Part shown: positions 7,747-57,975 of the stretch, in pieces
Numbering within the stretch: position 1 is the first letter of the stretch
Layout: the number at the start of each line of letters is the position of its first letter
Notes under the pieces: generated by a model
Told to the model about the DNA's origin: nothing
Database searches by the model: none
Seen by the model: the letters and a program-made list of their open reading frames with translations, nothing else
Translations under genes and position numbers: made by a program
Origin: Anaerolineales bacterium
GTDB lineage: Bacteria > Chloroflexota > Anaerolineae > Aggregatilineales > UBA2796
Reading direction: 5' to 3'
DNA length: 64,000 bases
Assembly: GCA_015075625.1 (NCBI GenBank)
Contig: JABTTZ010000001.1
Coordinates: 62,001-126,000, forward strand

Positions 7747-7910
7747 CCTACAGCATTTTTCAAGGAGATTACCCCCTTAGTGGTTGACAGCGCCCCTTTT
7801 CAAGATATACTTGCCGATGGGTTAGTGGGTGGTGATCAAGGAAAACGAACGACGCCCGTCCTTCTTGTAAGAAAACTGGTTGCAGTTCGACCAGTGAGGG
7901 TACTGCAATA
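7747..7910 (+). repeat. Promoter-bearing dispersed element, copy 1
   Basis: One of three copies of an element of about 161-165 bp that starts CCTACAGCATTTTTCAA and ends GGGTACTGCAAT. This copy fills the space between the ftsI stop (7746) and the mraY start (7914) almost exactly. It carries a sigma-70-like promoter and, towards the 3' end, CTGGTTG and CGACCAG arms that still pair through a G-U wobble although the other copies read CAACCAG. Removing it would leave ftsI and mraY four bases apart, a normal operon spacing, so it looks like an insertion. Confidence 0.85.
7784..7811 (+). promoter_or_regulatory. Sigma-70-like promoter driving mraY
   Basis: TTGACA at 7784-7789 and TATACT at 7806-7811 with a 16-base spacer. 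Both hexamers and the spacing are kept in all three copies of the element. It points towards mraY, and GAGGG at 7896-7900, also within the element, is the only visible ribosome-binding candidate, 13 bases before the ATG. Confidence 0.7.
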
Positions 7911-7913
7911 GTT

Positions 7914-8930
7914 ATGATCATCAACCCGCTTCCCTTCGCCCTAACGCTTGGCGCAATCGCCTTCCTCATCACCGTGATCTGGGGCGACCCCTTCATCGAG
8001 GTGCTGCGGCGCTTGAAGATTGGGCAGACCATCCGCGAGGATGGACCTGATTGGCACAGCGAACGCGCCGGAACACCGACGATGGGCGGCATTTTGATCC
8101 TCGTTCCGGTGGTACTGATCACCCTCATGGTCAACGGCGTGAATCTGCTCCGTGCCGCCGAGGGGGGGACGGGTATCAGCATCCTGATTCCGCTCTTTAC
8201 CCTGATCACCTTTGGGGCGCTTGGGGGGGCAGATGATCTGCTGAAGTTGCGGACGAAGGGCGAAGGCTTATCCCCCGCTGCCAAGACGGTTGTCTCGTTA
8301 GTCTTAGCAGGACTGGCGGCAGGGGCGCTTTCGCTGGTGAACGGCGGTTTTCAGTTTGCTAATGAACTTTACATCCCGATTAGCGGGATTCGCCTCGCAA
8401 TCTCCCCGCTGATCTACATCCCCCTTGCCATATTCATCATCATCAGCACCTCGAACGCGGTGAACCTGACTGATGGCTTGGATGGTTTGGCGGGATCGGT
8501 GGTGGCGGCGGCATTCGTCGCCTATGGGTTGATCGCCCTTGTGCAGGGGCAAATTTTCCTTGTCCAGTTCTGTTTTGTCATGGTTGGCGCGTGTTTTGCC
8601 TTCCTGTGGTTCAACGCACGCCCCGCCCAGTTGTTCATGGGCGATACAGGGTCGCTGGCGCTTGGGGCAACACTGGCTACAGTGGCGCTCATGAGCGGAC
8701 AGTGGGTGCTGCTGCCAATCATCGCCGTTGTGCCGGTGACGGAAGTCCTCAGCGTGATTGCACAGGTGATGTATGCCCGCTGGACGGGGGGCATTCGCCT
8801 TTTTCGTCGTGCGCCCATCCATTATCATTTCCAGTTGGGCGGCTGGAGCGAGACCCAGGTTGTCCAGCGCTTTTTTACCATCAGCCTCTTTGCGGCAATC
8901 ATCGGGGTGGCGTTGGCGCTACTGCGCTGA
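7914..8930 (+). CDS. mraY: Phospho-N-acetylmuramoyl-pentapeptide transferase MraY
   Basis: 338 aa polytopic membrane enzyme that transfers phospho-MurNAc-pentapeptide from UDP to undecaprenyl phosphate, making lipid I. Signatures are HSERAGTPTMGGILIL near residue 44, GGADDLLKLR, the catalytic NAVNLTDGLDGLAG (about 181-194), FMGDTGSLALGA (about 240) and RRAPIHYHFQLGGW near the C-terminus. It usually follows murF; here murE, murF and murD are missing and the upstream gene is ftsI, separated only by the promoter-bearing element. It therefore probably has its own promoter in addition to readthrough. Confidence 0.95.
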   Translation: MIINPLPFALTLGAIAFLITVIWGDPFIEVLRRLKIGQTIREDGPDWHSERAGTPTMGGILILVPVVLITLMVNGVNLLRAAEGGTGISILIPLFTLITFGALGGADDLLKLRTKGEGLSPAAKTVVSLVLAGLAAGALSLVNGGFQFANELYIPISGIRLAISPLIYIPLAIFIIISTSNAVNLTDGLDGLAGSVVAAAFVAYGLIALVQGQIFLVQFCFVMVGACFAFLWFNARPAQLFMGDTGSLALGATLATVALMSGQWVLLPIIAVVPVTEVLSVIAQVMYARWTGGIRLFRRAPIHYHFQLGGWSETQVVQRFFTISLFAAIIGVALALLR

Positions 8931-28535: not shown

Positions 28536-31500
28536 ATGACCCCCCGCAAAAAACTGATCGAGGTGGCGCTGCCACTGGAAGCCATCAATATCGCTAGCGC
28601 CCGCGAAAAATCGATCCGGCACGGACACCCCTCCACGCTGCATCTGTGGTGGGCGCGACGACCTTTAGCCGCTGCTCGTGCGGTGATTTTTGCCTCGCTG
28701 GTCGATGATCCTGACGATCCCGGCGCGCTGCCCGCCTTTGTCGATGCCTGCAAAATATTGGACGGCAAAGCGTTCGGCTATGAGAACAAAAATGTCCATG
28801 CCAATGGCGATACGCCGCGTATGCGCCTGTTTGACTTCATGGAGCGCTTAGTCCAGTGGGAAAGCACGACGAACGAGGCGATCCTAAACAAAGCCCGCCA
28901 GTTGATTCAGATTGCCACCGAAGGCAACCCCCCACCGCTGCTTGATCCCTTTGCTGGCGGTGGCAGTATTCCACTGGAAGCGCAGCGACTCGGTCTCGAA
29001 GCACACGCCAGCGACCTGAATCCTGTTGCGGTAATGATTAACAAGGCGCAGATTGAAATCCCCCCACGTTTTGCCAACATGCCGCCGGTGAACCGGCGAG
29101 GTCAGGCTGACCTGTTTGCCCCCACCCCTAGCCCCTCCCCCATTGAGAGGGAGGGGAATGATCGGTGGGAGATTTCGCCGGAATTGGAACGGCGTATGCA
29201 AGCAGTGGCGCGTGAACTTAGGAAGAACCCAACCCGCGCTGAAAAACGACTGTGGGAAGCCATTCGGAAAAATCAGATAGATGGGCGTAAATTCCGGCGG
29301 CAGGTTGCCATCGGCGCATTTGTCATGGATTTTTATTGCTCTTCGGAGCGCCTCGCTGTCGAGGTTGATGGTCCCATTCATGATAACCAGCAGGAAGCGG
29401 ATAGGGTGCGTCAGGAATTGATCGAATCCCTTGGCATTCGTTTTGTGCGCCTGACCAACGACGAGATAGAGCGCAACTTGCAAGCGTCTGTCGCCAAAAT
29501 CCGCGCGGCGTTCTTCCCCCACCCTCAATCCCTCCCCCACCCTCAATCCCTCCCCCAAAATGAGGGAGGGAAGCCTAATCTCCCCTCCCCCCCTGTGGAG
29601 TTTCTCCCCTCCCTCCCTGGGGGGGAGGGGTCGGGGGTGGGGGGGCAAGACACCACCTATCGCGGCGCAGCCGGACTCGCCGCCGATGTGCGTTATTACG
29701 GTGAATGGATGCGCGAAAGGGCATGGGAAAGAATTGGGCATCTGTACCCGACGCATAACGGCGAAACGGTGATCGCGTGGCTGTGGGCGCGGACGGTGAA
29801 ATGTCCAAATCCGGCATGTGGCGCACAAATGCCTTTAGTAAGCACATTCGAACTGAGCAAGAAACCAAAACGAAAAGCATGGATTGAACCCGTCATCGAT
29901 AAAGTTACAAAAACAGTTCAGTTTAATGTTCGGATGGGTGAAGGAAAAGCTCCAGAGGCATCTAAAGTTGGGCGCGGCGCAAAATTTCGATGTCTTGTCT
30001 GTGGTGAAACTGCGCCAGATCAGCATATCAAAGATGAAGGTATGGCAAATCGCACGGGTAGTCAATTGATGGCAGTTGTTACTGAGGGCACAAATGGACG
30101 TAATTATTACAGTCCAACGCCTCAACAAGAGGCAATTGCAAATCAAGCGCAACCCCAAGATTATCCAACGGCAGCATTACCTTACGAGCCGCGTGCAATC
30201 TGGTGCACCCTCTATGGATTAGACACATTTGACAAACTCTTCACCCCGCGCCAACTCGTCGCTTTGACCACCTTCAGCGATCTTGTGCATGAGGCACGCG
30301 CCCAAGTCCACGCCGATGCGCTTGCCGCCGGACTGCCGGACGACGGCATCCCCCTGCGCGACGGTGGGCGCGGCGCGCTGGCATATGCGGAGGCGGTTGG
30401 GGTGTATTTGGCGTTTGCGGTGGATAGAAGCGTAAATTACGGGTCTGCCGTTTGCTCATGGGATAATAGTCCCAAGATGGAAGGGGTACGAAACACTTTT
30501 GCTCGTCAGGCAATTCCAATGATATGGGATTTCGCAGAGGGCAACCCTTTCAGCGCATCCAGTGGAAATTATCTAAATAACGTTAATTGGGTGGCAAATG
30601 CAATAACCTTTCTCTCGTGTGTTATGGGTGGCAGAGTACGGCAGGTAGATGCATCCCATTTGACTTCTGACATTAAAGTTCTTTCCACCGATCCACCCTA
30701 TTATGACAACATCGGTTACGCGGACTTATCCGATTTTTTCTATGTGTGGATGCGTAAAGCCCTGAAAGATACCTATCCCGACCTGTTCAGCACGATGCTT
30801 GTCCCCAAAGCGCCGGAACTGATCGCCAGTCCCTACCGTCACGGCGGGAGCAAAGAGGCGGCAAACGCCCATTTTGAAGGCGGGATGCTCCAGACGTTCT
30901 CCAATATCCGCCGTTTTGCCTCGCCCGCTTATCCGCTGACGGTCTATTACGCCTTCAAACAGCAAAATTCCGAGGCGGCGGACGATGATGATGGTGGGGG
31001 CATGGGTCGTAGGGGCATGATGCATCATGCCCCTACGGATACCGATGGCATCCCCGATGACGAGAACGCCAATGACGCCCCGGCGCAACTACAAAGCTCC
31101 ACCGGCTGGGAGACGATGCTCAGCAGTCTCATTGAGGCGGGCTTTAGCATTGATGGCACATGGCCCATACGAACTGAGTTGAGCAACCGCATGCTTGGTT
31201 CAGGGACAAACGTCCTCGCCTCGTCCATCGTCCTTGTTTGCCGCCCGCGCCCAGAGGATGCACCGACCACCAGCCGCCGCGCCTTCCTCGATGCACTGCG
31301 CCGTGAGCTGCCCGCCGCGCTTAAAGAGATGCAATCGGGCAACATCGCCCCCGTTGACCTCGCACAAGCGAGCATCGGTCCGGGCATGGCAATTTATTCC
31401 CGCTATGCCAAGGTGCTGGAAGCCGATGGTTCACCCATGAGTGTCCGCGCTGCGCTGGGGCTGATTAATCAGGAACTGGATGCCTATCTCGCCGAGCAGG

Positions 31501-32012
31501 ACGGCGAGATTGACGCAGATACACGCTTTGCCGTGTCGTGGTTCGAGCAGTTCGGCTTCAACGAAGGCGAGTTTGGCTTGGCTGATGTGTTGGCGCGGGC
31601 GAAAAATACCAGCGTGGCAGGGGTTGAAACGGCGGGCGTCGTGCAATCTGGGCGCGGGAAGGTCAGGCTTATCCATTGGAAAGAGTACGATCCCGGCGCC
31701 TATGATCCGCAGTCTGACAAACGGGCGACGGTCTGGGAAGCGACCCACCATCTGATTGAACGGCTGAACAGTCACGGCGAAGAAGGGGCGGCGCGGCTCA
31801 TGAACCGGATGAATCGGGACGTTCTGGGCGAGGCGCGTAATCTCGCCTATCGGCTGTACAATATTTGCGAACGGAAAGGGTGGGCAGACCATGCGCGGGA
31901 TTACAACACGTTGGTCATTCAGTGGGTGGGTGTCGCCGAACGTGGGGCGGGGATCCGGCGGGCAGAGGACGCGAATCTCAACACCCACCAAAATACATTA
32001 TTCGATCTGTAG
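28536..32012 (+). CDS. DUF1156 adenine-specific DNA methylase with embedded DUF559 nuclease cassette
   Basis: 1158 aa. The start region (LIEVALPLEAINIASAREKS, LHLWWARRPLAAARAV) is the DUF1156 hallmark. SAM motif I is DPFAGGGSIPLEA (about 138) and the N6-adenine catalytic motif is DPPYYD (about 719). A zinc-ribbon candidate lies at CPNPACGAQMP (about 423) with RCLVCGE downstream. Two segments are foreign: residues about 195-370 hold a complete DUF559 domain between G/C-rich inverted repeats, and about 824-834 (GRRGMMHHAPT) is a translated REP palindrome. Without them the order matches ordinary DUF1156 enzymes of about 950 aa. The frame is intact, so the protein may still work. The stop TAG is contributed by another REP. 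Confidence 0.9.
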   Translation: MTPRKKLIEVALPLEAINIASAREKSIRHGHPSTLHLWWARRPLAAARAVIFASLVDDPDDPGALPAFVDACKILDGKAFGYENKNVHANGDTPRMRLFDFMERLVQWESTTNEAILNKARQLIQIATEGNPPPLLDPFAGGGSIPLEAQRLGLEAHASDLNPVAVMINKAQIEIPPRFANMPPVNRRGQADLFAPTPSPSPIEREGNDRWEISPELERRMQAVARELRKNPTRAEKRLWEAIRKNQIDGRKFRRQVAIGAFVMDFYCSSERLAVEVDGPIHDNQQEADRVRQELIESLGIRFVRLTNDEIERNLQASVAKIRAAFFPHPQSLPHPQSLPQNEGGKPNLPSPPVEFLPSLPGGEGSGVGGQDTTYRGAAGLAADVRYYGEWMRERAWERIGHLYPTHNGETVIAWLWARTVKCPNPACGAQMPLVSTFELSKKPKRKAWIEPVIDKVTKTVQFNVRMGEGKAPEASKVGRGAKFRCLVCGETAPDQHIKDEGMANRTGSQLMAVVTEGTNGRNYYSPTPQQEAIANQAQPQDYPTAALPYEPRAIWCTLYGLDTFDKLFTPRQLVALTTFSDLVHEARAQVHADALAAGLPDDGIPLRDGGRGALAYAEAVGVYLAFAVDRSVNYGSAVCSWDNSPKMEGVRNTFARQAIPMIWDFAEGNPFSASSGNYLNNVNWVANAITFLSCVMGGRVRQVDASHLTSDIKVLSTDPPYYDNIGYADLSDFFYVWMRKALKDTYPDLFSTMLVPKAPELIASPYRHGGSKEAANAHFEGGMLQTFSNIRRFASPAYPLTVYYAFKQQNSEAADDDDGGGMGRRGMMHHAPTDTDGIPDDENANDAPAQLQSSTGWETMLSSLIEAGFSIDGTWPIRTELSNRMLGSGTNVLASSIVLVCRPRPEDAPTTSRRAFLDALRRELPAALKEMQSGNIAPVDLAQASIGPGMAIYSRYAKVLEADGSPMSVRAALGLINQELDAYLAEQDGEIDADTRFAVSWFEQFGFNEGEFGLADVLARAKNTSVAGVETAGVVQSGRGKVRLIHWKEYDPGAYDPQSDKRATVWEATHHLIERLNSHGEEGAARLMNRMNRDVLGEARNLAYRLYNICERKGWADHARDYNTLVIQWVGVAERGAGIRRAEDANLNTHQNTLFDL
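29118..29646 (+). mobile_element. DUF559 (PD-D/ExK) nuclease cassette with terminal inverted repeats, in frame inside the methylase
   Basis: The left end (29118-29156: GCCCCCACCCCTAGCCCC ... GAGGGAGGGG) and the right end (29606-29646, read on the other strand: GCCCCCCCACCCCCGACCCC ... GGGAGGGAGGGG) are imperfect inverted repeats of about 40 bp. Between them is a DUF559 domain: RKNPTRAEKRLWEAIR, KFRRQVAIGAFVMDFYC, LAVEVDGPIHDNQQEADR, IRFVRLTNDEIERNL. The D of MDFYC and E-V-D of AVEVDG fit a Vsr-like endonuclease core. A tandem direct repeat (CACCCTCAATCCCTCCC twice, 29520-29556) lies near the right end. The methylase reading frame runs through the whole insert. Mobility is inferred from structure. 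Confidence 0.75.
31008..31037. repeat. REP palindrome inside the methylase frame
   Basis: A perfect 30-bp palindrome; the half-site is CGTAGGGGCATGATG. It starts with the GTAG tetranucleotide typical of RAYT-linked REPs and is translated in frame as RRGMMHHAPT, in a loop after the PLTVYYAFKQQNSE segment of the methylase. Confidence 0.85.
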
Positions 32013-32036
32013 GGGCATGATGCATCATGCCCCAAC
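32009..32036. repeat. REP palindrome supplying the methylase stop codon
   Basis: Same half-site as the 31008 copy with one mismatch in the right arm (CCCCAAC instead of CCCCTAC). The TAG stop of the methylase (32010-32012) is formed by the GTAG foot of this REP. Confidence 0.8.
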
Positions 32037-32235
32037 GTCGCTGCCGGATCATCCTGCGATAACGGCAATCCACGATGCCCAACCATGTGCATGGGATAAT
32101 CGTCATGGTGGATATGATGGTGGGGGCATGGCATTGGTGTTGGGGCATGGCATGTTGGGGCATGATGCATCATGCCCCTACGTCGTTGCCGGATCATGCC
32201 GCGATAACGGCAATCCGCGATGCCCAATCATATCC
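32033..32235 (+). repeat. Tandem repeat of REP plus RAYT gene fragments
   Basis: Two diverged direct repeats with a period of about 148 bp. Each follows a REP and reads ACGTCG(C/T)TGCCGGATCAT then GCGATAACGGCAATCC and GATGCCCAA(C/T)CAT. After the first, the sequence continues as a RAYT fragment encoding MPNHVHGIIVMVD, nearly identical to 32472-32508 in the intact gene. A third REP spans 32155-32182. This is degenerate debris of the REP/RAYT system, with no intact gene. Confidence 0.7.
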
Positions 32236-32249
32236 AATGGGGTTAATCG

Positions 32250-32813
32250 ATGAATACCAACCATCATCGTCGTTCTATCCGCCTGAAACATTACGATTAT
32301 GCCCAAAACGGGGCGTATTTCGTCACAATCTGTACGCATGAACGGCGGTGTTTCTTTGGAACAATACGTGATGGGGAAATGATGGTCAATGCATGGGGGC
32401 AGATTGTGATCGAGGAATGGGAACAAACGGCGATTTTACGCCCCAATGTGGCATTGGATGCGTTTGTGGTTATGCCCAATCATGTGCATGGGATAATCGT
32501 CATGGTGGATGATGGTAGGGGCATGATGCATCATGCCCCTACGGATCATGCCCCTACACAACCGCCCGATCATGCCCCGCCCAAACGTGAATTTTCCAAG
32601 CCGATTGCACAATCGTTGTCCACGATTATTGGGACATTCAAAGCGGCCGTCACCCGCCGCATCAACCGTCTGCCAAACGCATCCGGTCATTCCATCTGGC
32701 AGCGCAACTATTACGAACACATCATCCGCAATGACGACGACCTGATCCGCATTCGAGAATACATCGAAACGAATCCATCTCGGTGGCAGCAAGACAGCCT
32801 GTTTTCAAACTAA
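32250..32813 (+). CDS. REP-associated tyrosine transposase (RAYT, Y1 HUH family)
   Basis: 187 aa, close to the usual RAYT length. Single-strand DNA nuclease/transposase of the TnpA-REP type. The start RSIRLKHYDYAQNGAYFVTI is typical; the HUH motif is H78-V-H80 in MPNHVHGIIVMVD and the nucleophile is Y154 or Y155 in RNYYEHIIRN. A REP palindrome (32515-32542) lies inside the gene and is translated as GMMHHAPT, directly after the HUH motif, in a region that tolerates length variation. It sits between the methylase and the DUF499 gene, whose frame starts just after the RAYT stop. It is surrounded by its own REP family. Confidence 0.9.
   Translation: MNTNHHRRSIRLKHYDYAQNGAYFVTICTHERRCFFGTIRDGEMMVNAWGQIVIEEWEQTAILRPNVALDAFVVMPNHVHGIIVMVDDGRGMMHHAPTDHAPTQPPDHAPPKREFSKPIAQSLSTIIGTFKAAVTRRINRLPNASGHSIWQRNYYEHIIRNDDDLIRIREYIETNPSRWQQDSLFSN
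32515..32542. repeat. REP palindrome inside the RAYT gene
   Basis: Perfect 28-bp palindrome, half-site GTAGGGGCATGATG, identical to the copy in the methylase. It is read in frame in the RAYT. A partial repeat (GGATCATGCCCCTAC) follows immediately. Confidence 0.85.
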
Positions 32814-32824
32814 GAGGATTTATC

Positions 32825-35800
32825 ATGGCGAAAAGCAATCGTGACCGCATTGGGGACATCATGGACACGCTCAAGGGTGGGCTTGGTCGCTTCGTTGTCG
32901 ATGAATACCGCAGTGTCTACAAAGACGCCTTTGCCCACGAAATCGATGCGGTGTTGACGACGAGTGCCTATGAACTCCCCCGCAGTGCCTTCAACAGCCT
33001 CGACGCGCTGATCGGGCAGCTCGACATTCACAACCTTCTCAAATTAATCTGGCAGCGTTGGAATGATGTTTTTCGCCTAAAACTTGGGCAATCGGAACGT
33101 AATTATGTCAGCGAATTGATGACAGCCCGCAACGACTGGGCGCACCAAAAAGCCTTTGACAACGACACCGCCTACCGCATTGCCGATACAGCCGCTCGGC
33201 TGCTTCAAGGGGTTGGCGCCGTGAGAGAGGCAAACCATACCCGCGAAATTGCTACGGAACTGCTGCGCCTTCGTTTTGATGCGGAGGCAAAACAAGCCGT
33301 AAGAGCAACGGAGGAAGTCCCCGTGATTCGCACCACACCAGCCGGATTGCGTCCCTGGCGGCTGGTGGTCACACCGCATCCTGATGTTGCCAGCGGGCGC
33401 TACATCTTGGCGGATTTCGTTGCCAATATCGCTGATGTGAAAGCAGGAAAGGCCGCCTCTGAATATGGCGATCCGCACGAGTTCTTTCGCCGCACCTACC
33501 TCACCGAAGGGCTGCTATCACTGCTGGTGGCAGCCGTCCGGCGCTTGAGCGGTCAGGGCGGCGATCCAGTCGTGCAGCTTCAAACGGCATTCGGCGGCGG
33601 TAAAACGCACAGCCTGTTAGCGCTCTACCACCTGTTTAGCGGTGCCATTGGGTTTTCCGAAATCCCGGGCGGTGAACACATTCTCAAAGAGGTGGGACAG
33701 ATTGACGACAGAATCACGGCGAATCGCGTTGTCATTGTGGGGACGGCATTCAGTGCGACAGAACCGCGTGTCTATGCGGACGTAACCACCCATACGATGT
33801 GGGGCGATATTGCCTATCAATTGGGCGGCGCAAACGCCTACAAAGTGATTGAAAATGCCGATCTGACCGCCGTTGCCCCTGGCTCCGATACGTTGGTCAC
33901 ACTGCTGGAGGATTACGGACCGGCGCTGATCATGATCGATGAGTTGGTCGCCTTTGCCCGTAATTTACCGCTCACCACAGCAGAGCGCATCGCGGCAGGT
34001 ACATTCGACTCCACGATGACCTTTTTTCAGAATCTCACCGAAGCGGTCAAACGGTCTAGCGATTCGATGCTGCTGGTGTCCATTCCCGAATCTGAAAATG
34101 AGATCGGCGGTGAACTGGGCAAACAGGCGCTGGACACCCTTGCCAAAACGATTGGACGGATGGAGTCTATCTGGAAACCAGTGACGGCAATCGAGAGCTT
34201 TGAGATTGTGCGCCGCCGCCTGTTCACGACTGAGATCGACTATCCGGCACGCGATGCGGTGGTCAATGCCTTCACCGAAATGTATCGCACAAACAAAGGT
34301 GAATTCCCCTCCGGCGCATCTGAAGCTGGCTATGCCATCCGTATGAAGTCTGCCTACCCTATTCACCCAGAGTTGTTTGATCGGTTGTACCAAGATTGGT
34401 CAACCTTGGATCGCTTTCAGCGCACACGCGGCGTGCTGCGCCTTATGGCAACGGTCATTCACAAACTTTGGCAAGACAATGACCAATCGCTGCTGATTAT
34501 GCCAGCGAGCATTCCGCTGTGGGCATCGGGTGTTCGCAACGAAATGCTGCGTTACCTGCCGGAGACGTGGCCCGCCATTGTTGATGCAGACATTGACGGC
34601 GATGATGCCAAACCCTTCCAACTGGACAAGAGCGTGCCTACTATCGGTAAATATATGGCGAGTCGGCGCATGGCACGGAGCATCTTCGTGGGTTCTGCGC
34701 CTTCCGTAGCGGGGCAGACGGTTCGTGGGGTAGAAGAAGTGAGAATTCGTCTGGCAACGGTGCAGCCGGGGGAACCGCTGCCTGTTTTCAATGACGCCCT
34801 TCACCGCATGAGCCAGCAGTTGACCTACCTTTACACTGATGGCAGCCGCTACTGGTATGACACCCGCCCAACCGTCAATCGTATGGCGCAAGATCGGGCG
34901 CAGAACATCAATCCTGATTGGGTCTATCAGGAGGCGATTGACCGTCTGCGTGGGGTGAAATACCGCCGCGAGGATTTTTCTGCCGCACACATCGCCCCTC
35001 AGAGTTCTGGGGATGTGGCTGACGAATGGCGAACACGGGTGGTCGTCCTTGACCCGAACTATAGTCACAAAAAAGGCAATGGTGGCTCGGAAGCGCAGCG
35101 TGCCGCGCAGGAAATCCTTGAAAATCGCGGGAGTTCGCCCCGTCTCTATCGTAATATGCTGGTATTCATTGCCCCTGATGCCAATGACGCTGAGGCATGG
35201 GAGAAGGCGCTGCGCGAATATCTGGCATGGAAGTCTATTAAAGACGAAGCTGAACCGCTCAACCTGGATGCTCAACAGCGTAAGCAGGTCGATGCCAACT
35301 GCAAACGCACCGAGGAAACACTGCTCGTTCGGTTGCAGGAAACCTATAGCTGGCTGATTGTTCCTGTGCAGCCTGAGCCAACGGGACCGATTGACTATCA
35401 GGCACATCGCATTGCAGGGCAAGACAGCTTTTATGATCGGGCTGCTCAGAAACTGCGCCAGAGCGAAATGCTCATCCCGCGCTGGTCGCCGGATAATTTA
35501 CGCATGGAGCTTGACCGTTATCTATGGCGCGACCAGCCGCATCTGGGACTGAAGCAGCTTTGGGAGTATCTTGCTCGCTACTGTTATCTGCCCCGGCTTT
35601 ACAATGAGGAAGTACTGCTGGGAGCCGTAAGGGATGGTGTCGCCCGCCCCGATGCACCGTTCGGCTATGCGACGATGGTGAGCTTAGACGGGGTCTATAA
35701 AGGTCTCGCTTTCGGTCAGCCAACATCGAGTGTTTATTTCGATGAGAACGCCGTACTAGTGCGCCCTGAAATCGCTCAAAAACAGATTGATAGCCAGAAA

Positions 35801-36121
35801 CAGCAAACTATACAGCCGTTAACCACCCCTTCTTCTGAACGTTCCCAAGCACCCAGTGTATCCTCCACACCGCCAAAACCGAGGCTGACAACACGCTTTC
35901 ACGGGACGGTTTCACTTAACCCGCAGCGCATCAACAAAGATATGGGGACAATTGTGGAGGAGATCATCCAACGTCTCACCAGCCTGACGGGTACAGATGT
36001 TGAAATCACCCTTGAAATCAGCGCCGAACGCTCTGCCGGATTCGAGGATGCAACAATCCGAACGATCAACGAGAACAGCCGCACGTTGAAGTTCAAGAGT
36101 CACGGCTTTGAGGGAGAGTAG
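32825..36121 (+). CDS. DUF499 AAA+-type ATPase with N-terminal Swt1-like HEPN domain
   Basis: 1098 aa from ATG 32825, with AGAGGA seven bases upstream; an in-frame ATG at 32783 lies inside the RAYT gene. Residues 1-140 form a Swt1-like HEPN domain with the R-x4-H motif R-N-D-W-A-H (about 102-107). The ATPase core shows Walker A in TAFGGGKTHSLLALYHL (about 254-262) and Walker B in ALIMIDELVAFAR (about 367-379). The C-terminal third contains a linker rich in Gln/Ser/Pro (QKQQTIQPLTTPSSERSQ) before a small alpha/beta end domain. DUF499 ATPases accompany DUF1156 methylases in predicted defence loci. This is the last gene of the island. Confidence 0.9.
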   Translation: MAKSNRDRIGDIMDTLKGGLGRFVVDEYRSVYKDAFAHEIDAVLTTSAYELPRSAFNSLDALIGQLDIHNLLKLIWQRWNDVFRLKLGQSERNYVSELMTARNDWAHQKAFDNDTAYRIADTAARLLQGVGAVREANHTREIATELLRLRFDAEAKQAVRATEEVPVIRTTPAGLRPWRLVVTPHPDVASGRYILADFVANIADVKAGKAASEYGDPHEFFRRTYLTEGLLSLLVAAVRRLSGQGGDPVVQLQTAFGGGKTHSLLALYHLFSGAIGFSEIPGGEHILKEVGQIDDRITANRVVIVGTAFSATEPRVYADVTTHTMWGDIAYQLGGANAYKVIENADLTAVAPGSDTLVTLLEDYGPALIMIDELVAFARNLPLTTAERIAAGTFDSTMTFFQNLTEAVKRSSDSMLLVSIPESENEIGGELGKQALDTLAKTIGRMESIWKPVTAIESFEIVRRRLFTTEIDYPARDAVVNAFTEMYRTNKGEFPSGASEAGYAIRMKSAYPIHPELFDRLYQDWSTLDRFQRTRGVLRLMATVIHKLWQDNDQSLLIMPASIPLWASGVRNEMLRYLPETWPAIVDADIDGDDAKPFQLDKSVPTIGKYMASRRMARSIFVGSAPSVAGQTVRGVEEVRIRLATVQPGEPLPVFNDALHRMSQQLTYLYTDGSRYWYDTRPTVNRMAQDRAQNINPDWVYQEAIDRLRGVKYRREDFSAAHIAPQSSGDVADEWRTRVVVLDPNYSHKKGNGGSEAQRAAQEILENRGSSPRLYRNMLVFIAPDANDAEAWEKALREYLAWKSIKDEAEPLNLDAQQRKQVDANCKRTEETLLVRLQETYSWLIVPVQPEPTGPIDYQAHRIAGQDSFYDRAAQKLRQSEMLIPRWSPDNLRMELDRYLWRDQPHLGLKQLWEYLARYCYLPRLYNEEVLLGAVRDGVARPDAPFGYATMVSLDGVYKGLAFGQPTSSVYFDENAVLVRPEIAQKQIDSQKQQTIQPLTTPSSERSQAPSVSSTPPKPRLTTRFHGTVSLNPQRINKDMGTIVEEIIQRLTSLTGTDVEITLEISAERSAGFEDATIRTINENSRTLKFKSHGFEGE

Positions 36122-36311: not shown

Positions 36312-37145
36312 TTACGGAAAGACCACCCGCACAAGCTCATAGGCTTCTGGCTGCGGGTTTTCGGAAAGATGCGCCCACAGCGCGTAGACCTCCCCATCGC
36401 GGTAGGCAACCGTCGTCGCGGGATGTTTTTTCGCCTCGCCCGTCATCGTCGCTGTTGCCCACGCATCATCACTTTCCAAGCGAATTACCCGCCCACTAGA
36501 AACGCCGATCAGCACCCCCTCAGGCGTCAAAATCAGCCCATCAAAGCGTTCAGCTTGCCGAAGGGTTACCTCGGTGACAACGGGCGCTGCCTCCAAAGTA
36601 ATCTTGTAAAGTTTCCCGCCTCCAGCAAGGGCAACTAAGAGATACCCATCAGGGTGAGCAACGATTCCGTTCAACCCCAAAAAGGGATTTTGGAAGCGAG
36701 CATCTTTCACAAACAAAGACGCCTCTCCATTGGGGGTTACCTTGTAAATATGGGGTTGGGTCGAGTCCGTGACGTAGGCGTTTCCCTCCCCATCAACGGC
36801 GACATCGTTGGCAAAGTGGCGCGATTCCCCGCCAATTTTCGTCAGATCAACGAGGTGCAGCCGTTCGCCCGTCTTTAAATCATAGATGCCGAGGGCGATT
36901 TTTGTTTTTGCTAAGGGATTGGTGAACGCCTCCCGTTCCGAACTGCATACCAGCAGGCGTCCCCCTTTGGCGTCAACCTCAATGCCAACGGCGACTTTCA
37001 CTGCATCATCCTCTACCAGTGGAGTGGCTACCCCCTCATCGGTGATGGCATAAACCTTGCCATTTCCCAATGAGCCAACGAGGAACTGTCCGGCGGCGGC
37101 ATCCCATTCAACGCCTTCCGGGTTCAAATCCGGCTGGCGAATCAT
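36312..37145 (-). CDS. SMP-30/gluconolactonase-like beta-propeller, signal peptide split off
   Basis: 277 aa. Repeated propeller blades such as VEWDAAAGQFLVGSLGNGKVY, ANDVAVDGEGNAYVTDSTQP, LNGIVAHPDGYLLVALAGGG and FDGLILTPEGVLIGVSSG are typical of SMP-30-like proteins, calcium-dependent lactonases or sugar-binding propellers. Upstream of the ATG the frame continues as KYPDLI before reaching the dispersed element; beyond that element, in the same frame, is an orphan signal peptide. The gene was most likely secreted originally and is now separated from its export signal, with the element's promoter pointing into it. It may be expressed in the cytosol or be non-functional. Confidence 0.75.
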   Translation of the reverse strand: MIRQPDLNPEGVEWDAAAGQFLVGSLGNGKVYAITDEGVATPLVEDDAVKVAVGIEVDAKGGRLLVCSSEREAFTNPLAKTKIALGIYDLKTGERLHLVDLTKIGGESRHFANDVAVDGEGNAYVTDSTQPHIYKVTPNGEASLFVKDARFQNPFLGLNGIVAHPDGYLLVALAGGGKLYKITLEAAPVVTEVTLRQAERFDGLILTPEGVLIGVSSGRVIRLESDDAWATATMTGEAKKHPATTVAYRDGEVYALWAHLSENPQPEAYELVRVVFP

Positions 37146-37163
37146 AATCAGATCAGGGTATTT

Positions 37164-37328
37164 ATTGCAGTACCCTCACTGGTTGGGCTGCAACCAGCCT
37201 TCTTACAAGAAGGACGGGCATCGTTCGTTTACCCCTTGATCACCACCCCCTAGCCCATCGGCAAGTATATCGTGATAAGCAGGGCTGTCAACCACTAAGG
37301 GAGCAATCCCCTTGAAAAATGCTGTAGG
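37164..37328 (-). repeat. Promoter-bearing dispersed element, copy 2
   Basis: 165 bp on the minus strand, from CCTACAGCATTTTTCAAGG to GGTACTGCAAT. It lies exactly between a signal-peptide fragment and the SMP-30-like domain. Removing these 165 bp joins AAQE to KYPDLIMIRQ in one open frame. It keeps the CCTTCTTGTAAGAAGG inverted repeat and the CTGGTTG/CAACCAG stem. Confidence 0.85.
37264..37291 (-). promoter_or_regulatory. Sigma-70-like promoter in element copy 2
   Basis: On the minus strand TTGACA (37291-37286) and TATACT (37269-37264) are separated by 16 bases, as in the other two copies. It would transcribe the SMP-30-like gene. Confidence 0.65.
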
Positions 37329-37415
37329 CTCTTGTGCGGCGCTTGGGGAAGCCACACATACCATCATCATCAGGCTAACTGTAAGTAGCATCAACAGGCG
37401 TCTAAAAGGGTTCAT
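37329..37415 (-). pseudogene. Orphan signal peptide cut off by the dispersed element
   Basis: 29 codons encode a classic signal peptide: basic start MNPFRRLL, hydrophobic core MLLTVSLMMMVCVA, and cleavage region SPSAAQE. The frame then enters the dispersed element and ends at 37203. The distance between this start and that of the SMP-30-like gene (270 bp) is a multiple of three, and both belong to one frame once the element is removed. It starts 10 bp after the alpha/beta hydrolase stop, so it was probably the second gene of that operon. Confidence 0.7.
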
Positions 37416-37425
37416 CAGGACATCC

Positions 37426-38301
37426 TTATCCGTTTGATCCGTTCAAAAATGCCAAGATCAACTGATTCACCTCGTCGGGGCGCTCTTGCTGAACAAAATG
37501 CCCACCGCCCGGGAGGTAGATCAGATCGCAGCCGGGGGCAAATTTGCGCGATGCCTCCGCCGCACTCCGATCAACAACAGGATCGGGATCGCCCCAGATA
37601 ATGCGCGTTGGCATTTTCAAGATCAAATCACGCTTGGCAACCTTACCGAGTGTGCGAAAGGCAATCCGATACCAATTCAACGAGCCGTTGAGCGCTCCGG
37701 GTTGTTTCCACGCCACCTTAAAATACTCGATTTCTTCCGGGGTGACGGTGCTAACCGACTTTAGGGTATCCACCAACGCCTTGTAATTGCGCATGGCAAG
37801 AAGCGCCTCTGGAAGTGCCGGAAGTTGGAAAAAAAGCATGTACCAACTTTTTAGCAATTGGCGCGGGCTGCTGCGCAGCATCTTCGCCATGACCAACGGG
37901 TGCGGGACATTGCAAATGACCACCTTTTCAACCATCTCTGGGTGGTATGCCCCCATGATCCACGCCACGCCCCCGCCCCAGTCATGCCCAACGACGAAGG
38001 CTTTTTCCTTTCCTAACGCGGTGATCACCCCTGCTGCATCGTTGCTTAGGGTGATCAGGTCGTAGGGTGGTTTCTTCTCGGTCAGGTTATAGCCGCGCTG
38101 GTCGGGCGCTGCCACCCGATAGCCCGCCGCTGCCAGCGCCTTGATCTGGTGACGCCAACTGTACCAAAATTCGGGAAAGCCATGCAGCAGCAAGACGAGT
38201 GGCGCATCGGGATCGCCTTCTAAGGCAACGTTCATTGTCAGGTCGCCAACGCGAATCGTCTCTGTATGGAAATCTGTTGGGGCGAGAATAGAATGTGCCA
38301 T
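37426..38301 (-). CDS. Alpha/beta hydrolase, epoxide hydrolase family
   Basis: 291 aa from the ATG at 38301, with GAGGAGG nine bases upstream; an ATG at 38343 is less likely. Features of soluble epoxide hydrolases: oxyanion loop LLLHGFPEFWYSWRHQI, nucleophile region VVGHDWGGGVAW with Asp as nucleophile, acid region RIIWGDPDPVVDRS and the closing His in LPGGGHFVQQERPDEV. The Asp nucleophile argues for an epoxide hydrolase or haloalkane dehalogenase rather than an esterase. It is probably cytosolic. The downstream gene is the split SMP-30-like gene. Confidence 0.87.
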   Translation of the reverse strand: MAHSILAPTDFHTETIRVGDLTMNVALEGDPDAPLVLLLHGFPEFWYSWRHQIKALAAAGYRVAAPDQRGYNLTEKKPPYDLITLSNDAAGVITALGKEKAFVVGHDWGGGVAWIMGAYHPEMVEKVVICNVPHPLVMAKMLRSSPRQLLKSWYMLFFQLPALPEALLAMRNYKALVDTLKSVSTVTPEEIEYFKVAWKQPGALNGSLNWYRIAFRTLGKVAKRDLILKMPTRIIWGDPDPVVDRSAAEASRKFAPGCDLIYLPGGGHFVQQERPDEVNQLILAFLNGSNG

Positions 38302-38483
38302 TAGGTGCAGCCTCCTCAAGAGGGGGAAGTATATAAACTGCACCGATTATAATGTGTTGGTCAGCACAAGGGGGAAACTATCCTGATATTGGATGAATAG
38401 TTTCTATGCAATGCTTGAAAGGGATGGGGGATCGGTGTACAGTTGCTACCCAATAGGCACGTCATGGATTTTAAGTTCAGGGT

Positions 38484-57079: not shown

Positions 57080-57240
57080 CCTACAGCATTTTTCAACGAG
57101 ATTGACCCTCAGTGGTTGACAGCCCCGCTTATCACGATATACTTGGTGATGGGCAGGCGGTGGCGATCAAGGGAAACGAACGACGCCCGTCCTTCTTGTA
57201 AGAAGGCTGGTTGCAGTCCAACCAGTGAGGGTACTGCAAT
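57080..57240 (+). repeat. Promoter-bearing dispersed element, copy 3
   Basis: 161 bp, plus strand, from CCTACAGCATTTTTCAACG to GGTACTGCAAT. It lies divergently upstream of mazG and transcribes away from it. Within it are the inverted repeat CCTTCTTGTAAGAAGG (57191-57206), the stem CTGGTTG-CAGTC-CAACCAG (57207-57225) and ACTGCAA (57233-57239), which could alternatively pair with TTGCAGT (57211-57217). Downstream there is only a short open tail (ILPQIVERLNR then stop). Confidence 0.85.
57116..57143 (+). promoter_or_regulatory. Sigma-70-like promoter in element copy 3
   Basis: TTGACA at 57116-57121 and TATACT at 57138-57143 with a 16-base spacer, as in copies 1 and 2. No intact gene lies directly downstream, so a short non-coding transcript is possible. 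Confidence 0.6.
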
Positions 57241-57402
57241 AAATACCAACAAGCCAAGCCAACACCAGAAATCCTACCGCAGATTGTAGAACGATTGAAC
57301 CGTTAATCTAAGGTGGACTTTACACATGCGCCAATAAAGGGTAAAGAGGGAAAACAGGGGTGGGCGCAGCAGATGCGCCCTACACAATGACCTCGCCGGA
57401 CG

Positions 57403-57804
57403 CTACCCGCCCGTTGAAAGCGGCTGGTTGATCTCGATCAGCGTCCCTTCGGGGTCACAAAATGCGCGGTGCGCAATGCCCACACGGGCGATCTGTTGGT
57501 GGTGCGATCATTGCCACACCCTTGCCTTCCAACTCGCGCACGGTCTCATCGACATTATTCACCTCAAAGAGAGCAGCAGGCGATCCTTTCCGGCGCTCAT
57601 CTCCGGTTCGTCTCCCTTCCCAACAGCCTCCGCCATCATCCGCCGATCATACAAAGCAATGAAGGTATCCCCTGCGGAAAGTTCAACGTACACGCTGCCC
57701 TCCTCATCAAAACGGGCGCCAAAGCCCAAAATATCCCGATAAAAGCGGGTACAAGCACTTACATCGTTCACCAAAAGGCGGGTACTATGCAGCTTTAAAC
57801 GCAC
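57403..57804 (-). pseudogene. VOC/glyoxalase-family protein, frameshifted
   Basis: The first part is intact (MRLKLHSTRLLVNDVSACTR, FYRDILGFGARFDEEGSVYV) and is a vicinal-oxygen-chelate fold. The frame breaks near 57565, continues as FEVNNVDETVRELEGKGVAM, breaks again near 57490 where CCCGTG should read CCCCGTG, and a third time near 57465 (TTTTGTGAC for TTTTCGTGAC), before ending DPEGTLIEINQPL. Each break is explained by about one missing base. The gene is therefore probably intact in the organism. Confidence 0.75.
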
Positions 57805-57975
57805 TCACCAACCTCCCTATCGTGTGCCGATTACAGAACAATTGTATCACGGAAAGGCGCGGCGAGTCAAGGAATCTTGCGATAAATAGAAGGAAATCGC
57901 ACCAAAATAATCCCCAAAAGCGCCTCTCAAAATTCGCACAGATGATCAGACAAGACGATCCGTTGAGAGGCTGAA

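What the first reader, a model, noticed from the sequence alone, without database searches (positions are those of the whole stretch)
37157..37415. Element copy 2 separates a signal peptide from its SMP-30-like mature protein
An orphan signal peptide (start 37415) and the propeller domain (start 37145) are in the same frame. Deleting exactly 165 bp of the element joins AAQE to KYPDLIMIRQ with no stop. This is direct evidence for clean insertion into a gene, and would change a secreted protein into a cytosolic one driven by the element's promoter.
Basis: seen in the sequence. Interest (0 to 1): 0.65.

Follow-up and report, generated by a model that had tools for sequence, protein, structure and literature searches.

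The report
Short mobile element splitting a gene
A 162-base mobile DNA piece, present about 97 times in this genome and found in no other genome searched, has landed between the export signal and the body of a secreted enzyme-like protein, and the way it chooses its landing sites does not fully match any known family tested here.

Summary
A repeat at 37324-37163 (minus strand) splits a gene for a secreted SMP-30-like propeller protein just after its signal peptide. Deleting 162 bp (better supported than 165) joins SAAQE-PKYPDLI in frame, matching nine uninterrupted relatives. The repeat has about 97 copies here. None was found in 153 other genomes of the order, nor by exact match in 84,980 species genomes. 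It has no terminal inverted repeats and no target duplication beyond a possible TA. It lies just 3' of a pre-existing YCTA, shown by empty sites. Its right flank is strongly C-rich and G-poor 10-45 nt away (C minus G 6.3, against 0.24 at control YCTA sites). A near-consensus promoter points right, and 61 of 87 scorable copies face a downstream gene. Most likely mechanism: single-strand (HUH-type) transposition in trans, not proven. The secreted-to-cytosolic switch is unsupported: the ATG at 37145 is an internal codon without an obvious ribosome-binding site, so the gene is probably broken.

The parts
37163..37324 (-). Mobile element A, copy 2 (162 bp, CAGCATTTTTC...GGTACTGCAATA); 94.6% to the family consensus
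   Evidence: boundary
37325..37328 (-). Target tetranucleotide CCTA (YCTA) kept on the left side of the element
   Evidence: 79 of 83 copies begin CCTAC/CTTAC/TCTAC/GCTAC; YCTA present in empty homologous sites
37264..37291 (-). Promoter-like sequence TTGACA-N16-TATACT pointing to the right end of the element
   Evidence: 11 of 12 consensus matches; the -35 region is among the better conserved parts in diverged copies; recognisable in relics L190 and L192
37297..37313 (-). Left subterminal hairpin AAGGGGATTGCTCCCTT (weakly kept in the second subfamily)
37198..37213 (-). Hairpin 1 CCTTCTTGTAAGAAGG
37179..37197 (-). Hairpin 2 CTGGTTG-CAGCC-CAACCAG, 16 nt from the right end
   Evidence: compensated as CTGATTG..CAATCAG in relic L192
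37203..37415 (-). Orphan signal-peptide ORF (70 aa) that runs into the element and stops there
36312..37145 (-). SMP-30/gluconolactonase-like propeller ORF (277 aa), the body of the interrupted gene
37426..38343 (-). Alpha/beta-hydrolase gene just upstream (10 bp gap), probably the same transcription unit
7747..7910 (+). Element A copy 1 (first 4 nt CCTA = target), between a penicillin-binding-protein-like ORF and an mraY-like ORF
57080..57241 (+). Element A copy 3 (first 4 nt CCTA = target)

Best explanation
Element A is a small non-autonomous mobile element. Shown: about 97 dispersed copies; a sharp left end next to a pre-existing YCTA; a less exact right end; no terminal inverted repeats; no duplication of target beyond a possible TA. 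Inferred: it moves as a single strand under an HUH-type endonuclease acting in trans, either IS200/IS605- or REP-transposase-like (Y1) or rolling-circle (IS91/Helitron-like, Y2). The enzyme would cut after YCTA at the left, and the hairpin near the right end would mark a loosely defined stop. At 37324-37163 it inserted after the codons for Glu-Pro in a secreted SMP-30-like protein gene, separated the signal peptide from the mature protein and most likely inactivated the gene. Its promoter points into the remaining ORF, so residual transcription of that ORF is possible.
For: Uninterrupted relatives. Repeats B and C read ..CAACACAA|CCTA.. or ..GTAAGT|CCTA.. when empty and hold A exactly after YCTA in eight copies. 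The left flank is otherwise random, and direct or inverted flank matches do not exceed shuffled pairs. The right end varies as CTGC-A, -AA, -AAT, -AATA, with 4-nt duplications and a 16-nt tandem piece in L075. Both ends and the right hairpins are the best conserved parts in diverged copies. Y1 transposases are in the genome, one (L063) lying among REP-like B repeats. Against an RNA-copy route: counts of left ends (91), cores (97) and right ends (96) are about equal, and the two reverse transcriptases found resemble retron and defence RTs.
Against: No autonomous partner with matching ends was found; the IS605 copies present have different ends. A guide tetranucleotide that would pair with YCTA at the left hairpin foot could not be recognised. 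The loose right end is unlike IS200/IS605. Y2 enzymes were not searched. TA on both sides in over half of the copies also fits a 2-bp duplication. The strong C-rich right flank follows from no HUH rule that I know.
Confidence: 0.5

Rival explanations
1. A conventional cut-and-paste MITE with a TA target duplication: element CAGC...CTGCAA flanked by TA on both sides, moved by a DDE transposase.
For: The junctions read TA..TA in about half of the copies; L087, L075 and L017 are compatible. Many bacterial MITEs have terminal TA (PMC2229807).
Against: No terminal inverted repeats; the left YYTA is kept in about 95% but the right TA is missing in roughly 40%, also in young copies.
Confidence: 0.2
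2. A retroposon (SINE-like): an RNA copied into DNA at a nick, primed from the right flank.
For: Right-end slippage in 4-nt steps, tandem right-end fragments, and a right flank with strong composition bias.
Against: No excess of 5'-truncated copies; the promoter is internal, so its RNA would lack the left 70 nt; the two RTs resemble retron and defence types.
Confidence: 0.08
3. The element encodes a guide RNA like the omega RNA of TnpB: RNA from the internal promoter ends in the right flank, which serves as guide, and YCTA is the adjacent motif. This would add to, not replace, the transposition mechanism.
For: The layout (promoter, conserved hairpins abutting the right flank, YCTA on the left) matches IS605/TnpB logic; promoter and hairpins persist in old copies.
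Against: Only one full TnpB and one remnant in the genome, with other ends; the loop-tail pseudoknot does not covary; folding is no better than shuffles; no Rfam match.
Confidence: 0.1
4. A spreading promoter/leader under selection: copies are kept where they drive the next gene, and the SMP-30 remnant is now expressed without its signal peptide.
For: 61 right neighbours in the same direction against 26 opposite (p 0.0002); 24 copies end within 45 nt of a start codon; L189 keeps only the promoter half before an ORF.
Against: This explains retention, not movement; the C-rich bias is equal in young and old copies and in copies without an ORF start; for copy 2 the ATG has no clear ribosome-binding site.
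Confidence: 0.2

Closest known systems
IS200/IS605-derived ends-only elements (PATEs)
   Same: No terminal inverted repeats, no target duplication, insertion 3' to a short fixed sequence, subterminal hairpins, movement in trans (features from PMC7290912 and PMC6006769)
   Different: Right end not exact, no recognisable guide sequences, left hairpin weak, no matching transposase or ends in the genome, C-rich right flank
Helitron / IS91-type rolling-circle elements
   Same: Sharp start next to a short target, hairpin close to the other end, imprecise stop, no inverted repeats (from my own knowledge of the families)
   Different: Only 162 bp, different terminal sequences, no Y2 enzyme identified (not searched)
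REP/REPIN sequences with RAYT transposases
   Same: High copy number, intergenic, Y1 enzymes present; element A uses the ends of REP-like repeats B and C as landing sites
   Different: REPs are 21-65 nt hairpins with a GTAG/GTGG foot (PMC6006769); A is 162 bp with a promoter and unrelated sequence
Bacterial MITEs such as Correia/NEMIS, ERIC, RUP
   Same: About 100-200 bp, non-coding, promoter-like and hairpin motifs, mostly between genes (PMC2229807)
   Different: Those have terminal inverted repeats and usually TA at the ends with a duplication; A lacks inverted repeats and was found in one species only

Membership tests
IS200/IS605 family non-autonomous element | No terminal inverted repeats and no target duplication | tested here: met
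   (a 2-bp TA cannot be excluded)
IS200/IS605 family non-autonomous element | Inserted 3' to a fixed tetra- or pentanucleotide | tested here: met
   YYTA before the element in 79 of 83 copies, YCTA in empty sites
IS200/IS605 family non-autonomous element | Hairpin at each end with a tetranucleotide guide at its 5' foot | tested here: inconclusive
   Right hairpins clear, left one weak, no guide recognised by eye
IS200/IS605 family non-autonomous element | Exact right end set by a terminal tetranucleotide | tested here: not met
   About 40% of copies deviate from ..CAATA
IS200/IS605 family non-autonomous element | Autonomous relative with the same ends | tested here: not met
   Y1 and TnpB loci of the genome have other ends
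TA-duplicating MITE (Correia/ERIC/RUP kind) | Terminal inverted repeats | tested here: not met
   Ends CAGCATTTTTC and GGTACTGCAA(TA) are not inverted copies
TA-duplicating MITE (Correia/ERIC/RUP kind) | TA on both sides | tested here: inconclusive
   Left about 95%, right about 60%
REP/REPIN | GTAG/GTGG-tagged short palindrome | tested here: not met
   No such tag at the hairpin feet of the consensus
Helitron/IS91 | Y2/RepHel enzyme with matching ends | not tested
TnpB omega-RNA element | TnpB with a matching scaffold RNA beside it | tested here: not met
   no A-like sequence beside TnpB
SINE-like retroposon | 5' truncations and target duplications | tested here: not met
SMP-30/gluconolactonase-like secreted propeller (host gene) | SGL domain preceded by a signal peptide in one ORF | tested here: met
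   PF08450 over its cut-off; uninterrupted in relatives L032-L039 and L053

The most novel reading that the evidence does not exclude
A new kind of small bacterial mobile element that needs YCTA on one side and an unstructured C-rich, G-poor stretch of about 35 nt on the other, and that makes its own short RNA which takes part in choosing or recovering its site.
Probability: 0.15. Interest if true: 0.75.

Novelty: new variant of a known kind. Interest (0 to 1): 0.45.

Why it matters
A family of about 97 copies with nested insertions and empty sites inside one genome allows the target rule to be read directly. The one-sided C-rich preference is large, the same in young and old copies, and unexplained; it could reveal how such an element picks its target. 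The promoter-bearing copies next to gene starts are a natural set for testing how a mobile promoter reshapes expression.

Tried and rejected
Rfam at gathering and relaxed thresholds: nothing relevant. Element DNA in 60 relatives and the RNA model in 154 genomes of the order: only the window's own genome. Exact core pattern in genome and viral collections: 0 (the own genome may be left out there). Target duplications or inverted flank matches: none. Reverse-transcription route: set low after about equal left and right end counts and after the RTs proved retron/DRT-like. Loop-tail pseudoknot: no consistent covariation. Autonomous parent between unpaired left and right ends: only decayed copies in those inspected. 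IS110 bridge RNA: set aside by reasoning, since no long shared target exists; its recombinase was not searched. The C-rich flank is not a by-product of YCTA or of start codons.

Full report
Observation. On the minus strand a 70-aa ORF with a clear signal peptide (37415-37203) is followed in the same frame by a 277-aa ORF (37145-36312) that matches SMP-30/gluconolactonase (PF08450) over its curated cut-off. Between them lies a repeat whose other window copies are at 7747-7910 and 57080-57241. The same genome holds 97 places with the 23-nt core at up to three mismatches, none with the reversed control; 95 copies were aligned.

The interrupted gene. Relatives in the same family and order (41-46% identity for the nine best) run uninterrupted. 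Their N-terminus is signal-like (by eye) and joins the propeller directly, for example VSAQEDELPDLI in L036. Several cuts of 162 or 165 bp restore the frame in the window. With CCTA counted as target, the 162-bp cut (37324-37163) gives SAAQEPKYPDLI, which has the commonest relative length at the junction; the 165-bp cut is one residue short. So the insertion reading is right and the length is slightly revised.

Boundaries and target. Left ends are sharp: CCTAC 61, CTTAC 12, TCTAC 5, GCTAC 1 of 83; bases further upstream are random. The genome also carries REP-like repeats, called B and C here. Empty B reads ..TCAACACAACCTA-GTTCCCGGACAAGCC; L087 reads ..CAACAGCCCCTA-[element]-GTTACCGGACATGCC. 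Empty C reads ..GCGTAAGT-CCTA or -TCTA; L124 holds the element after its CCTA. L071 has TCTA, as some B copies do. YCTA was therefore there before insertion. Eight of 95 copies sit at such repeat ends against 23 of 2106 control YCTA sites, with motifs chosen after the fact. Flank pairs show no duplication or inversion above shuffled pairs. Right ends vary (46 of 83 CAATA; others stop after CTGCA, CTGCAA or CTGCAAT, or show TGCA, GCAA or CAAT repeated), also in young copies.

One-sided composition bias. Downstream of the right end, on the element strand, bases 20-30 are C 0.41 and G 0.15, fading by about 80 nt; the left side shows nothing comparable. C minus G over +10 to +45 averages 6.3, against 0.24 at 2008 control YCTA sites; 9% against 52% are zero or below; values are similar for young, middle and old copies. 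The bias is present with and without a nearby ORF start. I have no established mechanism for it; unstructured single-stranded target DNA is one guess.

Contents. TTGACA-N16-TATACT (11 of 12 matches) points to the right end. Two hairpins and the tail GAGGGTACTGCA lie near it. In the 30 most diverged copies the left end, the -35 region, the right hairpins and the tail are the best kept parts. Old relics L190 and L192 keep the promoter and hairpins, with one compensated stem in L192. Neither folding energy nor covariation proves an RNA function.

Context. By a simple codon-model gene call, 6 of 94 copies are inside genes; 61 right neighbours point the same way and 26 the other (p 0.0002), and 24 copies end within 45 nt of a start codon, against 9 divergent starts at the left end. 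Selection or insertion preference could both give this.

Mechanism. A left target tetranucleotide, no inverted repeats, no clear duplication and a subterminal hairpin point to an HUH-type single-strand route, Y1 or rolling-circle. The loose right end leans to rolling-circle, while the Y1 enzymes actually found lean to Y1. No matching autonomous element was found. I put the HUH reading as a whole at about 0.5. It is not filed as an IS200/IS605 member, because the exact right end and the matching autonomous element were tested and not met.

Function at this locus. The first ORF stops in the element. The ATG at 37145 is internal to the ancestral protein and lacks a visible ribosome-binding site; the nearest GAGGG is some 26 nt upstream. 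A cytosolic version is possible but unsupported; inactivation is the simpler reading.

Limits. Gene calls and the YCTA controls come from the fetched flanks, not from the whole genome. Public scans may leave out the window's own species.

Noticed in passing
window 28536-36121: HmaB-like adenine methylase (28536-32012) and HmaC-like ATPase (32783-36121) of a candidate defence system, with a Y1 transposase ORF (32250-32813) between them.
   Followed up: partly
window 30994-32558: Palindromic repeats GTAGGGGCATGATGCATCATGCCCCTAC around and upstream of that Y1 ORF, REP-like with a GTAG foot; the one at 30994 lies inside the HmaB reading frame.
   Followed up: no
window 7747-7914: Element copy 1 lies exactly between the stop of a penicillin-binding-protein-like gene (7746) and the start of an mraY-like gene (7914).
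   Followed up: partly
L063:1001-2350: A 134-aa Y1 (RAYT-like) transposase set in an array of REP-like repeats; the related B repeat has over 300 candidate places in the genome.
   Followed up: partly
L189:6555-6660: Left half of the element, with its promoter, directly before a 387-aa ORF; the right half is gone. Possible adopted promoter.
   Followed up: no
L199, L200: A retron type XIII-like reverse transcriptase and a DRT (UG35-like) reverse transcriptase in the same genome.
   Followed up: partly
L097 and window 57242-57841: Same right flank (98.5% over 600 bp) beside two element copies, so the region was probably duplicated after insertion.
   Followed up: no
L075, L085: Short right-end pieces of the element (16 and 14 nt) directly after a longer copy, as tandem remnants.
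   Followed up: partly
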